Below are positions 1,858 through 13,300 of a stretch of DNA of 40,076 nt, in pieces. Source of the DNA: Eubacterium sp. (GTDB lineage: Bacteria; Bacillota; Clostridia; Lachnospirales; Lachnospiraceae); contig JAFZRN010000018.1 in NCBI GenBank assembly GCA_017619835.1, positions 1 to 40,076 of the forward strand. The letters run 5' to 3'. The first letter of the stretch is position 1; every line of letters starts with the position of its first letter. The position numbers were made by a program, and so were the translations under genes. The notes beneath the pieces were generated by a model. The model was not told where the DNA came from. It searched no databases and saw nothing but the letters and a program-made list of their open reading frames with translations.

Positions 1858-3477
1858 ATGAAAAAAAGACAGTTGATAACAATTATAGCAGCCTGCCTTC
1901 TCATGTGCGTTGTTCTCTTTGTTTCGAACACGAACAGTGAAGCTGCCGAATGGAGACAGAAGGGTACCAAGTGGCAGTACGTTAAGGATAACGGAAAGGT
2001 TGTTAAAAAGAAGTGGAAAGAGATCGACGGCAGATGGTACTACTTCGATAAGAAGGGTTACATGGTGACCGGTCTTCAGACCATTGGCGGCAAGAAGTAT
2101 TACTTTGCGCCGAAGACCAAGGGCAGCTGGCGTATCGGTCAGAGGATGTATGGATGGCAGCTGGTTGATGGAAAGTATATGTACTTCAGCATCAACGGTG
2201 AGTATCTGCCTGAGTGCTCGTCCTATGAATCCGGAACCATAAAGGGTATTGATGTTTCCCAGTATCAGGGAAGCATGAACTGGTCAAAGGCCAAGAAGCA
2301 GGGCATCGAGTTTGCCATTATCCGTGTGGGTCACGGCAAGCATAACGTGGATCCTTACTTCAATACAAATATGATAAATGCAAATGCTGTCGGTATCAAA
2401 ACCGGTATCTACTTCTACAGTACGGCTAAGACCGAGAGTGCTTCGAGAAAGGATGCCCAGTGGGTTATCCAGCAGCTGAGAGGTCATAACGTAACTTATC
2501 CCGTTGCACTGGATATGGAGGATAACTCCCAGATCTCACTTGGACGTACCAAGATCACTAAGATTGCGAAGGCATTTCTTGATGAGATAGCTGCTGCAGG
2601 TTATACACCGATGATCTATCTGAATGAGAACTGGGCTATCAACTATGTTGATCTTTCCAAACTGCCCGGAGTTTACAGATGGGTTGCACGTTACAACGGC
2701 TCTTTCAATACTTCTATATCAAGAGATATCTGGCAGGCCGGAAGTACTGTATTGCTTGACGGAATAGATGTTAACTCGGTTGATATAGATTTCTGTTACA
2801 GAGATTTTTCAAAGATCGTTACTCCGAGAACAAAGCCTATATCATCCTATAAGACACATGTTAAGGGCTTTAAGAAATGTGCTCTTGGTATATGGTATGA
2901 TAAGGGCGACGGCACATTCCCTTATAGCTGCTGGATGACGATAGGAGATAAGACTTATTACTTCAATGATGAAGGCTATCTGACAAAAGGCTGGCTAAAG
3001 ACTACGACAGGAATTTATTTCCTTAATGATGACGGAACGAGAGCTGAGAGCCAGTGGATCACAGATGACGGACTTTACTATTGTGGTAAGGACGGACGAC
3101 TGGTTACAGGCTGGAATGATATAAACGGCAAGACCTATTACATGAACGCAATCGGAAAGGTTCAGACAGGATGGGTTGAAGCTGATGACGGAATATATTA
3201 CCTGAATCTTTCGGGAACACTTGTCAGAAACAAGTGGATCACCTATGAGGGCGACAAATACTATATCACAAGTGACGGAAAGCCTGCTGTAGGCGAGTAT
3301 GTGGTCGATGGTAAGACCTATGTATTCGATGATAACGGTGTGCTTCTGTATGAGGCAGAGAATAAGCCGGATCAGACGGATGAGACTAATCAGAGTGATG
3401 ATCAGAATTCGAATGATCAGACGAATACAAATGATACAACCGATTCGCCGGATCAGAATCAGATGTCTGAACAGTAG
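1858..3477 (+). CDS. Secreted GH25 lysozyme flanked by choline-binding-type repeats
   Basis: Exported muramidase that would cleave N-acetylmuramic acid-N-acetylglucosamine bonds in peptidoglycan. An N-terminal signal sequence (about residues 1-29, cleavage near SEAA) is followed by aromatic/glycine cell-wall-binding repeats (about 31-118). The GH25 domain (about 128-320) has GIDVSQYQG with D132, DMED with D219 and E221, and VDIDF near 309-312, the acidic residues of the family active site. At least five further wall-binding repeats of roughly 20 residues (GW...G.YY...G pattern, about 340-500) follow. The last 40 residues are a disordered Asp/Asn/Gln/Thr tail. The repeats resemble choline-binding modules, but the ligand in this organism is unknown. 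It is likely translated from the lysA transcript (GAGGG site overlapping the lysA stop region) and is ended by a bidirectional terminator. Confidence 0.9.
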   Translation: MKKRQLITIIAACLLMCVVLFVSNTNSEAAEWRQKGTKWQYVKDNGKVVKKKWKEIDGRWYYFDKKGYMVTGLQTIGGKKYYFAPKTKGSWRIGQRMYGWQLVDGKYMYFSINGEYLPECSSYESGTIKGIDVSQYQGSMNWSKAKKQGIEFAIIRVGHGKHNVDPYFNTNMINANAVGIKTGIYFYSTAKTESASRKDAQWVIQQLRGHNVTYPVALDMEDNSQISLGRTKITKIAKAFLDEIAAAGYTPMIYLNENWAINYVDLSKLPGVYRWVARYNGSFNTSISRDIWQAGSTVLLDGIDVNSVDIDFCYRDFSKIVTPRTKPISSYKTHVKGFKKCALGIWYDKGDGTFPYSCWMTIGDKTYYFNDEGYLTKGWLKTTTGIYFLNDDGTRAESQWITDDGLYYCGKDGRLVTGWNDINGKTYYMNAIGKVQTGWVEADDGIYYLNLSGTLVRNKWITYEGDKYYITSDGKPAVGEYVVDGKTYVFDDNGVLLYEAENKPDQTDETNQSDDQNSNDQTNTNDTTDSPDQNQMSEQ

Positions 3478-5619: not shown

Positions 5620-5883
5620 TTACAGACTTTTCAGCTCTCTCAAGGTGGTGCTGAGAGCCTCGAGGCAGGAAGCCATTTCCATTAAAAGAAGGTCCATTTT
5701 AAGTATCTCGGGGCGTATCGCATCGTATCTCTCGATGTAGCTTTGGGACAGCTCGCTGTGCCAGGCATCTTTAAGATGTCTCATGGTGTCATCAGTGCTG
5801 CATAGACAACAGGAAAGCTCGTATTGGCGCTCATTTATCTCGCGCGACAGAGCTTCCAGGTCGTCATATTTGATTCGTACCAT
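5620..5883 (-). CDS. Small WXG100-like helical protein
   Basis: An 87-residue protein, all predicted helix, with a central LKDAWHSELSQSY turn between two heptad-rich helices. This resembles the WXG100/ESAT-6 layout, in which a Trp-x-Gly turn separates two helices; here the Gly is replaced by Ser (W-H-S), so the match is to the fold pattern rather than the strict motif. Such proteins are often substrates of type VII secretion, but no EssC-type ATPase or other secretion gene is in the window. GGGAGG sits seven to eight bases before the ATG. It ends about 150 bases before the purO start. Two cysteines (SCCLC) in the first helix are unusual for the family. Any helical-hairpin protein could look like this, so the family call is tentative, but the gene itself looks real. 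Confidence 0.55.
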   Translation of the reverse strand: MVRIKYDDLEALSREINERQYELSCCLCSTDDTMRHLKDAWHSELSQSYIERYDAIRPEILKMDLLLMEMASCLEALSTTLRELKSL

Positions 5884-6607: not shown

Positions 6608-6635
6608 TTGTATTTTTTGTGAAATATGGTAAAAT
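6608..6635 (+). promoter_or_regulatory. Promoter of secreted-protein pair 1
   Basis: TTGTAT (6608-6613), a 16-base spacer with TGTGAAAT, and TAAAAT (6630-6635) with an extended -10 TG. The promoter before the second pair (9206-9233) has the same layout and spacer length. It leaves an untranslated leader of roughly 70 bases. Confidence 0.6.
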
Positions 6636-6712: not shown

Positions 6713-7645
6713 ATGAAGAGAACTTGTAAGAAAATCCTGGCGCTTATTCTGGCGGCAGTGATATGCGCATCAACATTATCATTTAGCTCGTATGCTGTAA
6801 CATTCCAGCCAAAAGCTGATGATACGCTTTATGTGGGTGCAAAACAGAATGCAAAAGGTGGATGGTCTAACATCTCTAAAGTAAGAATGGAGGTATTCTC
6901 CACAAAACAGTTAAATTTTGAATACCTTGGTAGTGCACAAGTATCGGTAAAGAGTAATAAACCGGCCGGACTTAAAGTTACTATTAACGGATACTATGAT
7001 GATAAGTATGAGTATGATCCAAAGACTAATTCATATAAAGGTGTGGTAGATGGCTGGATCAATATGTATGCATTAAAGACAGGAACATATACAGTTACTG
7101 TTACTGCAACTCTTTCAAACGGAAGCAAGAAGGAGCAGAAGATAAGTGTACTTGTTGGAACACAGACCGGTGTCATGAAGACAGCTAAGCTCGGCAAGAA
7201 GACTATCTATAATAATGTAGGAAAAGTTAAGAAGGGGGAGCTTATCAGTACATATTCGACAAATGATTATATTACTGCCAAGTCAGGTAAATTAAAGATA
7301 ACACCGAATACAAAATATAAGATTACAGGCATGGTAGTTGTAAGTGTTAATGCAAAAGGCAAAGTCTCTTACAAGAAAGTTAAGAACGGAAAGAATATAA
7401 CTCTGTCAAGAGGCTATCAAAGTAAAAGTTCTGATGCAATAGATGAAAGCAGTTATAAGTCATGTAAGAAGCATACATATATCTATGTTTCATATAAGGA
7501 CACATTTACTGGTGACAGCGTTACTTATTCTGTTTCCACTAAGCGCGGTAAAAAAGAGATAAAGGCTGTATATTTTGATAAGCAGACAGGATTTAAGACA
7601 GTAGGATACCAAGATACAGCTACATTCGATCTTTGGAATTACTAA
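6713..7645 (+). CDS. Secreted protein of unknown family, pair 1 member A
   Basis: A 310-residue exported protein. A signal peptide (1-28, cleavage after SYA) precedes a region with no recognised domain. An Ig-like strand with GTYTVTVTA (124-132) follows. Then comes a module (about 156-276) that starts KTAKLGKKTIY, passes through SGKLKITPNTKYKITGMVVV and ends THTYIYVSYKD-like (KKHTYIYVSYKD, 252-263). The same module is recognisable in the next three secreted genes. The protein ends in FDLWNY, nearly the FTLWNF end of its full-length paralogue at 9269, which also has exactly 310 residues. A GGAGG site precedes the ATG. Its partner gene starts 19 bases downstream. I recognise no enzyme motif; an adhesive or structural surface role is a guess. 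Confidence 0.8.
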   Translation: MKRTCKKILALILAAVICASTLSFSSYAVTFQPKADDTLYVGAKQNAKGGWSNISKVRMEVFSTKQLNFEYLGSAQVSVKSNKPAGLKVTINGYYDDKYEYDPKTNSYKGVVDGWINMYALKTGTYTVTVTATLSNGSKKEQKISVLVGTQTGVMKTAKLGKKTIYNNVGKVKKGELISTYSTNDYITAKSGKLKITPNTKYKITGMVVVSVNAKGKVSYKKVKNGKNITLSRGYQSKSSDAIDESSYKSCKKHTYIYVSYKDTFTGDSVTYSVSTKRGKKEIKAVYFDKQTGFKTVGYQDTATFDLWNY

Positions 7646-7664
7646 GGGATAGGAGGGGAATGAT

Positions 7665-9107
7665 ATGAGATTTAGTAAAATCAAACTAACTATCGCCGCT
7701 GTAGCGCTAGCTGCTTCCTTCTCTATGTTCGGATCTGTAGCAAATGCAGAAACAATTGATAATGGAACAGTTACTACATATGTCGGTGATTCGATTTCTA
7801 AGAGTACATCAAATCTTAAAATAAACGGAAAAGCATATAAGAAGCAAAAGTCTAAGGTTAAGACTATTGTAGTTGAAAAGCATGCTCAGAATTCGATGTA
7901 TCGTACTAAAGATTATTATACAACGAGTGGTGCATATGATACTTATAGTGCTTATGCAGCAGAGAACGAAGATGAGGCATATAAGTTTTATCCCAAAGAA
8001 ACTACTTATACAATGATCTTTAAAAAAGCAGGTTCTTATAAGATAAGCGTCGAAGACTATGTTTCGGATTTTTATGACTATGAATATGATGATTATGATT
8101 ACGATAATGGTGTATACGTTTATGATATTTACAAGCTTGACATACAAACCGGATATTTGGAGGATATTACAAAGGCTTACAGGATTACCGGATATGATTA
8201 TTATGACGATGATGACTATGATATCAGCGATACTGTAACTATAAATGGAAAAACTTATCAAAGAGCAGTTGAGACTTACTATGCTGGTTTTGATGGTTCT
8301 ATTTATGCTTATGGTGATGAATTTGTTCCTGCCAAAATAAATAAATGTAGTGATGGTCGTTTCCATGTAAGATATTCTGCTAATAAACCTAGAAAGGTTA
8401 ATTATGTTACAACCTATAAAGTTCTTGCCTGTGATGCTATTATTAAATCGGTAAAGCTTGGAAAGGCAAAGCAAACTTATAGTAACAAGCATAAAGTTGG
8501 TGGATATTCATATAAAGCTACCCGTGGTAAATTCCTTACAGGAAACAGCGGAAAACTTGAAGTTACTATGGGAGACAAAAACTTTAAGCTTGGTGGAAAT
8601 ATAATTGTTGAAACATCTGATGAAAAGAGCAGAACAGTATATAACCAGGTAGGAAACAAGAAAACAGTGACCTATGGTAATTATCTGTATAATCAATTTG
8701 CAAATTATACGTATGATGATGGAAAAAAATGGGGCTATCAATATGTAGATCCGTTTAAGGCTACTACACTCCATATACCTTTTACTGTAGTATCTGATGA
8801 ATGCGGAACAACAGTATCCGGTTCAGGAGACAGCTATGTTATTACAAATTATTATCAGGAAATAATAAAAGGAAAAAAGTATAAGCATCAGACAGTATAT
8901 AATATAAATATTGTAAAAGAAACTTTTGATGACGGAAGTTTTGAGTATCAATTTAAGTATAAGTATACAGTTACTGATCCTTACTATGACTCTGCTACTA
9001 AGACAGTAAAGACAGACACTATAGTTTCAGATGATCTTACAAAAACGGCAAATGATATAACTGATTTTATGAGTTATTATCATACATATGTATTCTATAA
9101 AAACTAA
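7665..9107 (+). CDS. Secreted protein of unknown family with Asp/Tyr-rich insertion, pair 1 member B
   Basis: A 480-residue exported protein with a signal peptide (cleavage near VANA, about residue 28). An Ig-like strand KKAGSYKISVEDYVS leads into an insertion dominated by Asp and Tyr (FYDYEYDDYDYDNG, later YDYYDDDDYD; about residues 130-185). The chain then returns to the shared module at IIKSVKLGKAKQTY (about 265) through NSGKLEVTMGDKNFKLGGNIIVET. A long further beta-rich tail follows, ending HTYVFYKN. The acidic stretch could bind calcium, but no EF-hand or RTX repeat is present. By eye the gene is more AT-rich than its neighbours. AGGAGGGG sits before the ATG, and the gene ends at a strong terminator, so pair 1 is a two-gene operon. 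Function unknown. Confidence 0.75.
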   Translation: MRFSKIKLTIAAVALAASFSMFGSVANAETIDNGTVTTYVGDSISKSTSNLKINGKAYKKQKSKVKTIVVEKHAQNSMYRTKDYYTTSGAYDTYSAYAAENEDEAYKFYPKETTYTMIFKKAGSYKISVEDYVSDFYDYEYDDYDYDNGVYVYDIYKLDIQTGYLEDITKAYRITGYDYYDDDDYDISDTVTINGKTYQRAVETYYAGFDGSIYAYGDEFVPAKINKCSDGRFHVRYSANKPRKVNYVTTYKVLACDAIIKSVKLGKAKQTYSNKHKVGGYSYKATRGKFLTGNSGKLEVTMGDKNFKLGGNIIVETSDEKSRTVYNQVGNKKTVTYGNYLYNQFANYTYDDGKKWGYQYVDPFKATTLHIPFTVVSDECGTTVSGSGDSYVITNYYQEIIKGKKYKHQTVYNINIVKETFDDGSFEYQFKYKYTVTDPYYDSATKTVKTDTIVSDDLTKTANDITDFMSYYHTYVFYKN

Positions 9108-9120
9108 CTGATATTATTTG

Positions 9121-9151
9121 TTCAGCAGGCCTTGTGCCTGCTGAATTTTTT
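9121..9151 (+). terminator. Rho-independent terminator after pair 1
   Basis: A perfect 10-bp stem (9121-9130 with 9136-9145), CTTGT loop, then six T residues. It separates the two secreted-protein pairs. Confidence 0.92.
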
Positions 9152-9205
9152 ATATCAGAATTCAGATATATATATTATGTATATGTCTATTTTGCTTAAA
9201 AAACA

Positions 9206-9233
9206 TTGCTTAAATTGTGAAATGTGTTAAAAT
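9206..9233 (+). promoter_or_regulatory. Promoter of secreted-protein pair 2
   Basis: TTGCTT (9206-9211), a 16-base spacer containing TTGTGAAATGTG, and TAAAAT (9228-9233) with an extended -10 TG. It closely resembles the promoter of pair 1 in sequence and spacing, suggesting the pairs are expressed together. Confidence 0.65.
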
Positions 9234-9268
9234 ATTTTCTATCCAAATACAAAAAAGGAGGGAGAGAG

Positions 9269-10201
9269 ATGAAGTATTCTCTGAAAAAAGTATTGGCGCT
9301 TTTACTTGCAGCTGTTATCGCTATTTCCGTATTTAATGCTTCCCCTGCTGCAAATGTAGAAGCAAAGTCGACTAAGTATAAGGCCGGTGCTGTTTATGTT
9401 ACTCCGTATTCTCTTAACAGAAATGATCCTAACGAGATATGGAAGAGCGTTAACAAGATAAGAGCTACGGTTTATAACGTAAATTCAATGTGTGTTTACA
9501 AGTCAGATCTGGCTGCTATAGTTGACGTTAAGGTTAAAGGTAAGGGGCTTGCTGCTGCAGCTTCCAGCTATGTTGACAGGACCGGAGATTGCAGGATAGG
9601 ATATGTTGATTTCGAAGCTAAAAAAGCCGGAACATATACCGTATCCTTCAAGATAAGGACAACATCAGGAGCAATAACCAAGAAGTATTCATTTAAGGTA
9701 TTTGCTACCATCAGTGGTGAAACGTATAAGTCTGTTAAGTTTGGCGGACAGACAATATTCAGCAGCAGTGCAAAATTAAAGAAGGGTGTTCGTACTATCA
9801 AGAATTCAAATAATTATAAGATTTCCAAGAAGTCCGGAAGACTCTATGTAAAGCCAAACAGTGGTTATAAAATAACCGGTTTAGTTGTTGTTACATCTAA
9901 TGGGAAGAATGGTGCGCCTGTTGCCAAATCTTATAAGAATGGCGCAAATATTCAGACTTCTTCAAAGTATTCTTATAAATATTCCAGCGCAGGAAGTTCT
10001 TCACGTTCAGTTGAAAAATATACTGCGATATATATTTCATATAAGGATACCAAGATGGGAACATATGTTAAATATTCCGTAACAAAGAAGCACGGGACTC
10101 AGGAGATAAAGCGTGTATCAAAGTATGCTGACGGTTCGGTTTATACCAGCTATATCTATCCGAGCACAGGCGGCGGAAACTTTACTCTTTGGAATTTCTA
10201 A
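9269..10201 (+). CDS. Secreted protein of unknown family, pair 2 member A
   Basis: A 310-residue exported protein, a clear paralogue of the gene at 6713 with the same length. A signal peptide (1-32, cleavage near VEAK) is followed by an unassigned region. Then come an Ig-like strand AKKAGTYTVSFKI (117-129) and the shared module from YKSVKFGGQTIF (153-164) through SGRLYVKPNSGYKITGLVVV (189-208) to YTAIYISYKD (251-260). It ends in FTLWNF. The start was set at the ATG giving MKYSLKK behind AAGGAGGG; the open frame upstream (from 9224) overlaps the promoter and has no SD. The partner gene begins 18 bases downstream. No catalytic motif seen. Confidence 0.8.
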   Translation: MKYSLKKVLALLLAAVIAISVFNASPAANVEAKSTKYKAGAVYVTPYSLNRNDPNEIWKSVNKIRATVYNVNSMCVYKSDLAAIVDVKVKGKGLAAAASSYVDRTGDCRIGYVDFEAKKAGTYTVSFKIRTTSGAITKKYSFKVFATISGETYKSVKFGGQTIFSSSAKLKKGVRTIKNSNNYKISKKSGRLYVKPNSGYKITGLVVVTSNGKNGAPVAKSYKNGANIQTSSKYSYKYSSAGSSSRSVEKYTAIYISYKDTKMGTYVKYSVTKKHGTQEIKRVSKYADGSVYTSYIYPSTGGGNFTLWNF

Positions 10202-10219
10202 GGAAGGAGGAAATAAATT

Positions 10220-11092
10220 ATGACACAGTTTAAAAAATCAAAAGTATTAGCATATGCTTTAATTTTAGCTTTTGTTGTTAGTCTTTTCTCTTTCTCAAGT
10301 ATTCCGGTAGAGGCTAAGGCTAAGAAGACAAAAGTTGCAACCGTTAAGACTACTTCATCCATAGGTGGAGGAATAATATTTTACGGTGTTACCGATATCA
10401 AGGTAAAGAAGAGCAAGGGAACAAAAAAGAAAAAGATTGAGACTCACAGAAATTCTGTTAAGCTGAGAACAGGCGGATATTATACAAGTTCTTCAAATTA
10501 TAAGAGCCAGAAGAAGTATGAGAAGGCCAGAGATCAGTATAAGTATAAGACGACCTATGACTATGTTGTTTACTTCCTTAAGGCCGGAACATATACGGTT
10601 ACATATAATACTTATGTATCTTCAGAGTATAAATATGTTGACGGTAAGGGCGGATATTATGGCCCCGGAAAGATTGTTAAGCATACAGTTAAGGTTACTG
10701 TAAGTCAGCCCGGATACGGTGTAAAGTCTGTTCAGTTTGGCAAGGCGATAAATTCATATTCTGTCACTCAGAAGAAATTTAAGAAAACATCTGTATCCAA
10801 GTATAATCCTTATGTAACTTCAAGTTCTGCCAAGCTTACGGTTAATATGTTTAAAGGGTTCAAGATCCAGAAGATTGAGGTAGATATAAGGAATGCAAAC
10901 GGAGGATGGCAGACTTTTACATATAATGGAAATAATAAGACTAAGCAGGTTGTAAAGGGTGTTCCTGTTAATACCTATAAACCGGCATCTGCAGGTTCCA
11001 GTTATGCGCCTGCAACATATATTTCTGTGTATTATAAGACTCCTTCGGGAGGTACCGAATACGATTCATATAGGTTCTATTACGGCAGGTAA
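10220..11092 (+). CDS. Secreted protein of unknown family, pair 2 member B
   Basis: A 290-residue, strongly basic exported protein. A signal peptide (about 1-34, cleavage near VEAKA) precedes a lysine-rich N-terminal part and the Ig-like strand LKAGTYTVTYNTYVS. The shared module follows, beginning VKSVQFGKAINSYS (about 169), continuing SSAKLTVNMFKGFKIQKIEVDI and ending TYISVYYKTPSGG before a short tail (YRFYYGR). It lacks the acidic insertion of the pair 1 partner and is much shorter. AAGGAGG lies before the ATG; a terminator follows the stop. Function unknown. The repeated A-B organisation of the two pairs suggests duplication of a two-gene unit followed by divergence of the B members. Confidence 0.75.
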   Translation: MTQFKKSKVLAYALILAFVVSLFSFSSIPVEAKAKKTKVATVKTTSSIGGGIIFYGVTDIKVKKSKGTKKKKIETHRNSVKLRTGGYYTSSSNYKSQKKYEKARDQYKYKTTYDYVVYFLKAGTYTVTYNTYVSSEYKYVDGKGGYYGPGKIVKHTVKVTVSQPGYGVKSVQFGKAINSYSVTQKKFKKTSVSKYNPYVTSSSAKLTVNMFKGFKIQKIEVDIRNANGGWQTFTYNGNNKTKQVVKGVPVNTYKPASAGSSYAPATYISVYYKTPSGGTEYDSYRFYYGR

Positions 11093-11105
11093 ATATGCTC
11101 TTAAG

Positions 11106-11133
11106 ACGGACGGGTTTTCCCGTCCGTTTTTTT
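11106..11133 (+). terminator. Rho-independent terminator after pair 2
   Basis: A perfect 9-bp stem (11106-11114 with 11119-11127), TTTT loop, seven T residues in all at its end. Confidence 0.92.
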
Positions 11134-11233: not shown

Positions 11234-13300
11234 ATGGAAGAGTATTCTTTGAAGACCAAATTAAAACTGGGCTTATGCTTAGCTCTGTTTTTTGTTTTTA
11301 CGGTATTCTTTTACGGCCCAATAAGTATATATCTGTCAAATGCCGACGAGCTTAAATTCGGACTCGGAATAGTAATGAAGGATGTTGCAATAGTATCGAT
11401 CGTAATGTTCATCCTGATCGCAGGCTTCAGCCTCATAGTTCCGAAAAAACTTTTCAAATGGTACATGCTGCTTCTTCTCGGCGTCGGAATAGGCTTCTAT
11501 GTTCAGGGAAATTATATAAACTATAACTACGGCGTTCTGGACGGAAAGGAGATCAACTGGTCAAAGTATACAGGCTATGGATTTATCAATACAGCTATCT
11601 GGGCTGTTTGTATTCTGGTTCCATTTATCATTTATCTTGTGATCAGGAAGAAGGGCGATGCTCTGATCAATAAGGTGGTGGTGGCTATATGTCTCTTCCT
11701 CGTAGCGATTCAGATCCCCGCATTTATTTCACAGGCAGTATCCTATAAGAAAAAGGACACCGAAGCGCTTGTGATCACCGATAATGAGATGTTTACCTAT
11801 GCTCCCGATGATAATATCGTTGTTTTCCTGCTTGACTGCATGGATGAGGTATATTATCAGGATTATCTTACGAGACATCCCGAATTTGAGGCTGAAAATC
11901 CGGGCTTTGTACATTATGATAATGCCATGGCCGGTGGAGCAAGAACCATGCTTGCAATGCCTGTATTCTACACTGGTCAGACCTATGAAAGACAGAACAG
12001 CTACAGCGATTATATAAAAGAGATTTTTAAAGGCGATGATAACCTTCTCAAGAAAATGAGTGACGCCGGATATGATGTAAGAGTATACTCTGAATCATTA
12101 TTCTTCCCGGGCTATACTTCGGAATATGTTTCAAACTTTGAAACAGTTACCGATCCTGTTACCTCGGAAAACATTTTAACAAGAAAGCTTTACAAGCTTT
12201 CACTCTTCAAGTTTGTGCCTCATTTCCTGAAGCCTAGATTCTGGATGATGACCTCAGATTTCGAGCAGGCAATGAAGAGAGATAATACTTACGAATTCAA
12301 TGATCCCCAGTTCTATGACAAATACTATCATCAGCATATGACGATAGATAAGTCTAAGAAGAAGACATTTACCGTATACCATCTGGAGGGTAACCACAGG
12401 CCGTTTGATATGGACGAAAATTGTGCCGCTATCGAAAAGTCCGCACGTAAGAAACAGATGGCCGGAGTTTTCAGGATCGTTAAGGAAATGCTTGATGAGA
12501 TGAAGGAAAAGGGAATCTATGATTCATCGACGATCCTTATCACGGCAGACCACGGCGACTTTAAGCAGTGCCAGTGGATGATGTGTATGCTTAAAGAGGC
12601 GGGGGCTGAGGGCGAGTGCAGATATTCTCACGCACCCATTTCCGCTTTTGACTATTCAATCTATCTTGCCGGACTTGCTGGTCAGACCATGACTAATAAG
12701 TACGGAGTTGATATGCTGAGTCTTGCCGAGGATGAAAAGAGAGAAAGACACTTATTCCGTAATACTACGGACAACAGTAAGCCTGTTGTTATGGAATTTG
12801 TGACAAACGATGATGTAAGCAAATATAAGAAGCTGAAAAAAGTGAACGAATATGTTGATGACGGAGAGGTGGTTCCGTACATACTCGGAGACAGACTGGG
12901 CTTCGATGCGGATGACACCGGTAACCCATATGCTGTGGAGGGCTTTGCCGATAACCACGGTTTCAGGACAAGACTGAGAGGTCCACGTGCAACCCTTGTG
13001 ATCCCATTTGCGGAGAAACCTGATAAGAAGCTGACCTGCGATATTGAGATCCACGAGCGTACAGAGCAGAGCTATGGAATGAACTGTGTCATCAAGGCCA
13101 ACGGAGTAGAAGTTTACAGAGGAGTTGCGGACGATACTATGATCGAGAAGGGTATATCCTTTGATCTTGACAAATCTATCTTCAAGGATAATACTTTGCA
13201 GCTTGACTTCGAATTCCCCGACCTTCCGGAGGAAGAAATGAATCTGGAGCTCACTCAGCGTACGACGACAATATCGATCGTTTCGATCGTAATCGAGTAA
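11234..13300 (+). CDS. Membrane-anchored sulfatase-fold (LTA-synthase-like) transferase or hydrolase
   Basis: A 688-residue membrane enzyme. About four or five hydrophobic segments lie in the first 170 residues, followed by an extracellular alkaline-phosphatase-superfamily domain. Landmarks are DDNIVVFLLDCMDE (192-205, first metal-binding Asp), AMAGGARTMLAMPVFYTG (231-248, with T238 in the place of the nucleophile), EGNHRPF (385-391) and ITADHGD (436-442, metal-binding Asp-His). A beta-rich C-terminal part of about 150 residues is unassigned. Relatives transfer phosphoglycerol or phosphoethanolamine to lipids and glycans, so modification of a wall or membrane polymer is likely; the exact substrate cannot be read. 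The ribosome site is weak (GAAAGAGG, 12 bases away). proC follows after 40 bases. Confidence 0.8.
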   Translation: MEEYSLKTKLKLGLCLALFFVFTVFFYGPISIYLSNADELKFGLGIVMKDVAIVSIVMFILIAGFSLIVPKKLFKWYMLLLLGVGIGFYVQGNYINYNYGVLDGKEINWSKYTGYGFINTAIWAVCILVPFIIYLVIRKKGDALINKVVVAICLFLVAIQIPAFISQAVSYKKKDTEALVITDNEMFTYAPDDNIVVFLLDCMDEVYYQDYLTRHPEFEAENPGFVHYDNAMAGGARTMLAMPVFYTGQTYERQNSYSDYIKEIFKGDDNLLKKMSDAGYDVRVYSESLFFPGYTSEYVSNFETVTDPVTSENILTRKLYKLSLFKFVPHFLKPRFWMMTSDFEQAMKRDNTYEFNDPQFYDKYYHQHMTIDKSKKKTFTVYHLEGNHRPFDMDENCAAIEKSARKKQMAGVFRIVKEMLDEMKEKGIYDSSTILITADHGDFKQCQWMMCMLKEAGAEGECRYSHAPISAFDYSIYLAGLAGQTMTNKYGVDMLSLAEDEKRERHLFRNTTDNSKPVVMEFVTNDDVSKYKKLKKVNEYVDDGEVVPYILGDRLGFDADDTGNPYAVEGFADNHGFRTRLRGPRATLVIPFAEKPDKKLTCDIEIHERTEQSYGMNCVIKANGVEVYRGVADDTMIEKGISFDLDKSIFKDNTLQLDFEFPDLPEEEMNLELTQRTTTISIVSIVIE

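What the first reader, a model, noticed from the sequence alone, without database searches (positions are those of the whole stretch)
6713..11092. Tandem duplicated pairs encoding four secreted proteins with a shared, unrecognised C-terminal module
Seen: four consecutive genes, all with signal peptides, arranged as A-B, A-B with 19- and 18-base gaps, each pair with its own promoter and terminator. All four have an Ig-like strand (AGTYTV, TGTYTV or AGSYKI) followed by a module that opens K(S/T)(V/A)(K/Q)(L/F)G and contains S(G/A)(K/R)L.(V/I). The A members, both exactly 310 residues, and the shorter B member then end the module in (Y)I.(V/Y)YK. I know of no family with this layout. Inference: an unnamed surface or secreted family that grew by duplication of a two-gene unit, perhaps with A and B proteins interacting.
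Basis: partly seen in the sequence, partly recalled or inferred. Interest (0 to 1): 0.75.

Follow-up and report, generated by a model that had tools for sequence, protein, structure and literature searches.

The report
Paired secreted proteins sharing one module
Some gut bacteria, mostly Lachnospiraceae, carry an unnamed family of small, mostly strongly basic secreted proteins that share one tail module and are often encoded as two adjacent genes, perhaps working together in the cell wall, though this has not been tested.

Summary
In detail: coordinates, lengths, gaps, motifs and terminators check out. The four proteins match no Pfam model above its cut-off. Profiles show one C-terminal module shared by A, B and further relatives. 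A's N-terminal Ig-like domain is also in the relatives; B's N-terminal half is different except for one strand of about 20 residues. B follows A in 10 of 10 cases with readable downstream DNA (one B is broken). Pairs of other family members also occur, so pairing arose at least twice. The window pairs are not a recent duplication: A1-B1 is closest to a pair of another lineage, while A2 and B2 are far from both. Yet the two pairs share a 19-bp promoter element with no other genomic match at 2 or fewer mismatches. The proteins have signal-like N-termini, no recognised anchor, and pI 8.9-10.0 in 39 of 40. At 4 of 26 loci a peptidoglycan hydrolase is the next gene, more than expected but noticed before it was tested. 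Best reading: a non-covalently wall-retained two-protein surface unit that works like, but is not, the WxL/WxLIP system. A-B binding is inferred. The family is new; clustered Ig-like surface proteins are a known kind.

The parts
6617..6635 (+). promoter-like element of pair 1, TTGTGAAATATGGTAAAAT (contains a TG-extended -10-like hexamer)
   Evidence: 17 of 19 identical to the element of pair 2; no other site in the genome at 2 or fewer mismatches
6713..7645 (+). A1: signal peptide, N-terminal Ig/PKD-like domain, C-terminal shared module, C-terminal FDLWNY
   Evidence: nearest relative L039_A, 49%
7665..9107 (+). B1: signal peptide, unrecognised N-terminal half with acidic Tyr-rich stretch, C-terminal shared module, C-terminal VFYKN
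   Evidence: nearest relative L039_B, 43%, support 99/99
9120..9146 (+). terminator-like hairpin after pair 1
9215..9233 (+). promoter-like element of pair 2, TTGTGAAATGTGTTAAAAT
9269..10201 (+). A2: same architecture as A1; AlphaFold2 model all-beta after the signal helix, C-terminal strand ending LWNF
   Evidence: (pLDDT 84, pTM 0.77)
10220..11092 (+). B2: short B, C-terminal shared module, C-terminal RFYYGR
   Evidence: (pLDDT 65, weak model)
11103..11130 (+). terminator-like hairpin after pair 2
11234..13300 (+). neighbour, probably not part of the unit: membrane protein (hydrophobic N-terminal part, by eye) with a sulfatase domain (lipoteichoic-acid-synthase-like: label recalled); two homologues stand at the same locus of genus-mate G827

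Best explanation
A and B are Sec-secreted, unanchored, mostly basic beta-sandwich proteins made from one two-gene transcript. After export they stay in the cell wall non-covalently, most likely by charge on its anionic polymers, and they work as a pair: each uses the common C-terminal module to dock onto the same partner (the wall, or each other), while the different N-terminal halves face outwards or bind each other. They form a wall-associated surface layer or adhesive unit. Shown here: signal-like N-termini, absence of the anchors tested, the shared module, conserved tight pairing, joint inheritance of A and B, and a promoter element common to the two window pairs. Inferred: one transcript, wall retention, A-B contact, and the role.
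For: Signal peptides (heuristic passed by 42 of 49 members). Of 43 members, 0 have LPXTG, the distal WxL motif, a lipobox or a further TM-like stretch. pI is 8.9-10.0 in 39 of 40 members (B1 is 7.1), against a median of 5.0 for 22 other secreted-looking ORFs of the loci. B follows A in 10 of 10 with readable downstream DNA, gaps 14-24 bases with the starts I chose (window gaps). Distances of A and B correlate over 9 pairs (r 0.74, p 0.0002), so they are inherited as a unit. Pairing arose at least twice: C1 and C2 are separate clades of 7, while the L015 pair is its own tandem duplication (100/99). Every A ends with a W within its last six residues (11 of 11) and every B with F-Y or F-N there (9 of 9). 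Of 48 immediate flanking genes at 26 loci, 4 encode peptidoglycan hydrolases above Pfam cut-off (GH25, two Amidase_3, CHAP) and a fifth matches NlpC/P60 below it. For GH25, Amidase_3 and NlpC/P60, counted over 8 genomes, 0.20 was expected; 3 seen above cut-off, P about 0.001 (assumes 0.93 genes per kb). In the window and in G827 the next gene is a sulfatase-domain protein; a paralogue elsewhere in the own genome stands in a phosphonate-type gene cluster.
Against: No interaction, localisation or binding evidence exists. The neighbour enrichment was noticed before it was tested; 19 of the 48 neighbours were scanned against Pfam and 29 judged by eye from their first residues, and 22 of 26 loci have no hydrolase next door above cut-off. 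Basic pI (above 8.5) also occurs in 9 of 22 control ORFs, and B1 is not basic. Seven loci have a single member with no partner, so the family can work alone. The correlation of A and B trees follows from linkage and does not prove contact. The A-module profile hits 15 of 21 C/S members at E<0.001, not all. The promoter-like element is AT-rich and was not tested for activity.
Confidence: 0.4

Rival explanations
1. Secreted carbohydrate-binding adhesins or scaffold modules that attach these gut bacteria to plant or mucus glycans. The module is a CBM-like beta-sandwich, and A and B are two specificities expressed together.
For: All-beta model rich in Tyr. Weak Foldseek hits include the cohesin-FN3 construct of a glycoside hydrolase, CbhA FN3-like modules and a surface glycan-binding protein. 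Four of 13 record titles name goat, roe deer or rumen. A GH9 and Ig-repeat protein stands two genes from the pair in L040.
Against: No CBM family among the Pfam matches listed (25 of 31 A-set families shown). The named Foldseek hits have query TM-scores of 0.13-0.27, so they are generic tandem Ig/FN3 hits. Apart from L040 I saw no polysaccharide-utilisation genes in the flanks read by eye.
Confidence: 0.25
2. Ordinary tandem paralogues: secreted adhesins that diversify by duplication, with adjacent copies but no physical or functional coupling beyond one transcript.
For: The L015 pair is plainly a tandem duplication (100/99) with a 159-base gap. Single members exist at 7 of 26 loci. Divergence is high: 34-39% identity among most A.
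Against: The A-then-B order, 14-24-base gaps and class-specific C-termini are kept across deep divergence. C1-C2 shows the same ordered pairing with 12-31-base gaps in another branch.
Confidence: 0.25
3. A secreted antagonism pair (toxin with partner) or a bacteriocin-like system.
For: Paired, secreted, patchy distribution (11 of 397 family genomes by my reading). Two weak NCBIfam matches in one member each: an ocin family (E 0.03) and a toxin-antitoxin toxin (E 0.094).
Against: Both partners have signal peptides, so B is not a cytosolic immunity protein. Those two matches are at chance level among 18 members, and no PADLOC match at E<=0.1 was found for the four window proteins. No relatives in viral contigs (A, B and C profiles), nor of A1 in plasmids or phages.
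Confidence: 0.05
4. Genuine members of the WxL/WxLIP wall-binding system, diverged.
For: Clustered secreted Ig-like proteins; weak Pfam WxLIP_HBD matches in 2 of 18 A-type members (best E 0.005); the WxLIP structure 9i1y appears at rank 17 for the weak B2 model (E 0.041, probability 0.15).
Against: 0 of 43 have the distal WxL motif, or any W.L in the last 190 residues, and 0 of 43 a later TM-like stretch; no WxL or DUF916 match in the listings.
Confidence: 0.05

Closest known systems
WxL / WxLIP clusters (DUF916-DUF3324) of Lactobacillales and Bacillales
   Same: Clustered genes for secreted proteins, partly with IgG-like folds, that are proposed to form a complex on the wall without covalent anchoring (abstract and outline of PMC10599100; passages of PMC5817068).
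   Different: No WxL motif, no transmembrane protein in the unit, no DUF916/DUF3324-type match better than E 0.005, other host bacteria.
Bacterial Ig-like / PKD / FN3 domains (Big_2, PKD, fn3)
   Same: A's N-terminal domain has a (K)xGTYTV strand; the PKD model matches 7 of 18 A-type members weakly (best E 0.00028).
   Different: No match above the curated cut-off in the four window proteins; for relatives the cut-offs were not shown. The PDB profile hits lie in the Ig part only, best E 0.0018.
CshA-type fibril repeat
   Same: A weak match to A2's module (E 0.05); a fibrillar adhesin repeat.
   Different: 14 bits against a cut-off of 60; one of 18 members; two-gene unit of short proteins rather than a long repeat protein.
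GW (SH3-8) modules, wall binding via peptidoglycan and/or lipoteichoic acid
   Same: Non-covalent wall retention of secreted proteins (passages of PMC5817068); that GW modules are basic is recalled.
   Different: No sequence match listed; the model is an Ig/FN3-like sandwich.

Membership tests
WxL proteins | distal motif Y...(L/I/V)TW.L...P near the C-terminus | tested here: not met
   0 of 43 members; motif as printed in PMC5817068
WxLIP | C-terminal transmembrane helix after DUF916-DUF3324 | tested here: not met
   0 of 43 members with a 19-residue stretch of hydropathy above 1.6 after residue 60; WxLIP_HBD in 2 of 18, best E 0.005
Sortase-anchored Ig-like adhesins and pilins | C-terminal LPXTG-type signal | tested here: not met
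   0 of 43 in the last 60 residues (motif recalled)
Sortase-anchored Ig-like adhesins and pilins | intramolecular Lys-Asn isopeptide bond | not testable with these tools
   K88, K119, K223 and N224 (P0003 numbering) are invariant in 18 A-type rows, but no coordinates were available to measure distances
Bacterial Ig-like (Big_2) / PKD | Pfam model above gathering score | tested here: not met
   none above cut-off in the four window proteins; in relatives best PKD E 0.00028, cut-off not shown
This unnamed family (A/B/C/S) | shared C-terminal module detected by profile | tested here: met
   A-B 99.2%, A-C/S 98.8%, B-C/S 99.1%; by single sequence 9 of 9 B and 15 of 21 C/S at E<0.001
This unnamed family (A/B/C/S) | signal peptide and no anchor | tested here: met
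   (42 of 49 by a heuristic, not SignalP)

The most novel reading that the evidence does not exclude
The C-terminal module is a new, convergently paired wall- or self-docking domain. A and B (and, in another branch, C1 and C2) co-assemble through it into a two-component, unanchored surface layer or fibre of Lachnospiraceae, with the class-specific C-terminal strands (A ...LWxY, B ...FYKK) as the pairing code that keeps A from pairing with A.
Probability: 0.2. Interest if true: 0.65.

Novelty: new variant of a known kind. Interest (0 to 1): 0.45.

Why it matters
How Lachnospiraceae, common gut anaerobes, dress their surface with proteins is, to my knowledge, poorly described. This family gives a defined two-gene unit with clear architecture, ordered pairing that evolved at least twice, and short testable constructs. 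If the reading holds, it is a non-covalent wall-retention or surface-assembly module outside the LPXTG, SLH, LysM and WxL classes. If A and B do not interact it is an ordinary unnamed adhesin family.

Tried and rejected
Recent duplication of the two-gene unit: rejected, since A1-B1 and A2-B2 have different nearest relatives and A1/A2 are 39% identical.

Mobile or phage origin: no relative in viral contigs (3 scans: A, C and B alignments), and none of A1 in plasmids or phages (the other three proteins were not searched there).

Defence system: no PADLOC match for the four proteins at E<=0.1.

Same Ig domain in A and B: the KxGTYT strand is common, but the A N-domain profile hits 0 of 9 B and 20 of 21 C/S, and the B N-half aligns over 21 residues only (68%).

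Wide spread: with the 18-row profile at E<=1e-5, 1 of 398 genomes drawn from the phylum matches, the window's own; in its genus 3 of 61 (own, G824, G827). In the family 20 of 397 match at E<=0.001; I count 11 as true members (G000, G112, G142, G144, G147, G166, G177, G188, G200, G268, G306). The nine dropped, judged from the table and ORF lists: G002, G119, G129, G164, G171, G191, G284 and G346, with weak hits around the Ig-like part, mostly in long frames or with stops, and G143, a stop-broken remnant (E 1.3e-11).

Fold naming by Foldseek: only generic tandem Ig/FN3 hits with low TM-scores and mixed viral hits. The B2 model (pLDDT 65) is too weak to superpose on A. An A+B complex could not be predicted.

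GH25-A-B operon in G824: a terminator-like hairpin stands between GH25 and A (read by eye in the alignment), so not claimed. The start of a possible B in G824 (63 residues at the contig end) fits the B profile only at E 0.059, best of 1000 shuffles 5.9 bits against 8.4, and is not counted.

A conserved promoter in other A loci: the upstream alignment shows no common element over 8 sequences.

Literature: four searches (1, 53, 17 and 0 papers, listings seen) showed no description of this family in what was listed (15 of 53 and 10 of 17 rows seen).
Full report
Observation. The four genes are as described: A1 310 aa, B1 480 aa, A2 310 aa, B2 290 aa, gaps of 19 and 18 bases, terminator-like hairpins after cyclophilin, B1 and B2. 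All listed motifs are present. The two pairs are preceded by a 19-bp promoter-like element, 17 of 19 identical, with no other match in the window at up to 3 mismatches (0.04 expected) and no other in the 2.75 Mb genome at 2 or fewer (five more at 3 mismatches; the backwards control pattern gave 4). The two pairs are probably switched on together (inference). Eight upstream regions of A genes show no common element.

Family. None of the four matches a Pfam family above its cut-off. Among 18 A-type sequences the best Pfam match is PKD, E 0.00028 (25 of 31 families shown, cut-offs not shown) and the best NCBIfam match E 0.015; among 9 B sequences the best Pfam match is E 0.02 and NCBIfam gives none at E<=0.1. 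Genome searches found relatives in the same family: with A1 alone 6 of 299 genomes, with an 8-row profile 20 of 397, of which I count 11 as true. The B profile rings in 7 of 397; B proper is in three of these (G000, G188, G200), the others are hit through the shared module. In the phylum sample 1 of 398 matches, the window's own genome; in the genus 3 of 61. A scan of named genome contigs gave 13 loci, 9 of them titled Lachnospiraceae, four titles naming goat, roe deer or rumen. That the window's family f1 is Lachnospiraceae is inferred from contigs of equal length (L043 and G200:C30, L048 and G268:C37). No relatives were found in viral contigs, nor of A1 in plasmids or phages. In the own genome the family is seen only in this window.

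Architecture. Split profiles give a clean result. The C-terminal modules of A, B and the C/S group are homologous (98.8-99.2% profile-profile). The N-terminal domains of A and C/S are homologous (99.2%). B's N-terminal half matches neither beyond one strand (68% over 21 columns with A, 19% over 20 with C/S). By single sequences the A-module profile hits 9 of 9 B and 15 of 21 C/S at E<0.001; the A N-domain profile hits 20 of 21 C/S and 0 of 9 B; 0 of 3030 controls reach E<1. B is therefore the module on a different front half. AlphaFold2 gives A2 an all-beta model at pLDDT 84; B2 is weak (65). PDB fold matches are generic tandem Ig/FN3 proteins with low TM-scores.

Pairing. Over 26 loci, ten carry A. 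B follows on the same strand in 10 of 10 A genes with readable downstream DNA, gaps 14-24 bases (the window gives two; in L038 the B frame is broken). In the eleventh A, at a contig end in G824, a signal-peptide frame starts 17 bases downstream and fits B only weakly (E 0.059). Seven loci carry C1-C2 pairs (gaps 12-31), two more carry other pairs (L081 = L015, L085 = L025), and seven carry a single member. In the tree A is one clade (100/100), C1 and C2 are separate clades of 7, and the L015 pair is its own duplication (100/99), so adjacent pairing arose at least twice. B was not in that tree, so whether A-B and C1-C2 pairing share one origin is open. Over 9 complete A-B pairs the A and B distances correlate (r 0.74, p 0.0002), which shows joint inheritance and does not prove contact.

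History at this locus. A1 and B1 are both nearest to the L039 pair; A2 groups with the A of G824 of the same genus (83/84) but has its highest identity, 39%, to L038_A; B2 has no supported place. The chromosomal site is shared by three genus members. Window, G827 and G824 all have the CxxCxxCC gene followed by mnmA (window mnmA by Pfam; CxxCxxCC; the other mnmA genes by eye). In G827 a single family member stands between cyclophilin and two sulfatase-domain proteins, with a GH25 gene further out. In G824 the A gene stands beside a GH25 lysozyme next to the CxxCxxCC gene; the window has a GH25 at 1858-3477. This looks like an old, changing surface-protein site rather than a fresh duplication.

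Mechanism. The proteins look exported. Of 43 members none has LPXTG, the distal WxL motif, a lipobox or another TM-like stretch. They are basic (39 of 40 with pI 8.9-10.0; B1 7.1), against a median of 5.0 for 22 other secreted-looking frames, 9 of which are also above 8.5. Four of 48 immediate neighbours are peptidoglycan hydrolases above cut-off and a fifth is below it; 0.20 is expected for three of the families from counts in 8 genomes, 3 seen, P about 0.001. This test was made after seeing the pattern, 19 of the 48 neighbours were scanned, and 22 of 26 loci show no such neighbour above cut-off. A second copy of the neighbouring sulfatase-domain protein lies in a PEP mutase / TPP enzyme / iron alcohol dehydrogenase cluster, which fits surface-polymer decoration with phosphonates (inference). 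The simplest model is non-covalent wall retention with A and B acting together. Each A ends with W and each B with F-Y or F-N in the last six residues (11 of 11, 9 of 9), a candidate pairing strand. Confidence is 0.4.

Comparison. The WxL/WxLIP clusters work alike (abstract of PMC10599100; passages of PMC5817068), but their defining motif and membrane helix were tested and not met. The literature searches listed no description of this family; the library holds open papers only.

Verdict. Real, unnamed and conserved; a new family of a known kind; moderately interesting, with a cheap decisive test (A-B binding).

Noticed in passing
L042 666-3428 and A proteins of L041, L039, L045: The signal peptide of an fn3/Ig-repeat secreted protein (..FAFCFMFANVITVNA) is nearly the same as that of A proteins, above all L041_A (..LAFCFLFANVITVNA), although its Pfam matches differ; may mark exchange of signal peptides or a special export signal.
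   Followed up: no
L040 8223-9734 (-), L041 8292-9863 (-), L042 3549-5066 (-): The same kind of 503-523 aa protein (hydrophobic N-terminus, very acidic; pI 4.1 in L040 and L041) stands beside the A-B pair in three loci; Pfam gives nothing for L040, Prok_Ub without a single passing stretch for L041, and matches below cut-off for L042.
   Followed up: partly
G000:C28 (L075 880-8508): A paralogue (55%) of the window's sulfatase-domain protein lies in a cluster with PEP mutase/cytidylyltransferase, a TPP enzyme, Fe-alcohol dehydrogenase and a transglutaminase-like protein: looks like phosphonate decoration of a surface polymer.
   Followed up: partly
window 5620-5883 (-): WXG100-like small protein (E 1.6e-5, 25.5 bits against a cut-off of 27.3) between IMP cyclohydrolase and cyclophilin; an 87-aa frame is at the same place in G827 (L074 13749-14012).
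   Followed up: partly
L040 (JAMPFJ010000018.1): The record is titled Bacteroidales, but the contig of the same length, G188:C9, is placed in the window's family f1; the title is probably wrong.
   Followed up: partly
L038 1666-2808: The B partner of the roe-deer MAG is broken into two frames; assembly error or real decay cannot be told.
   Followed up: no
L019 (G143:C68) and L049: Both lie upstream of an rpsO-like gene (by eye); L049 holds a single family member, L019 only a stop-broken match, so the same site may hold a living and a decayed copy.
   Followed up: no
L074 10340-12679 (-): A 779-aa secreted-looking protein with YTYDKKGRVKK-like repeats and no Pfam match at E<=0.001 stands, with the single family member, in the place that A1-B2 take in the window.
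   Followed up: no
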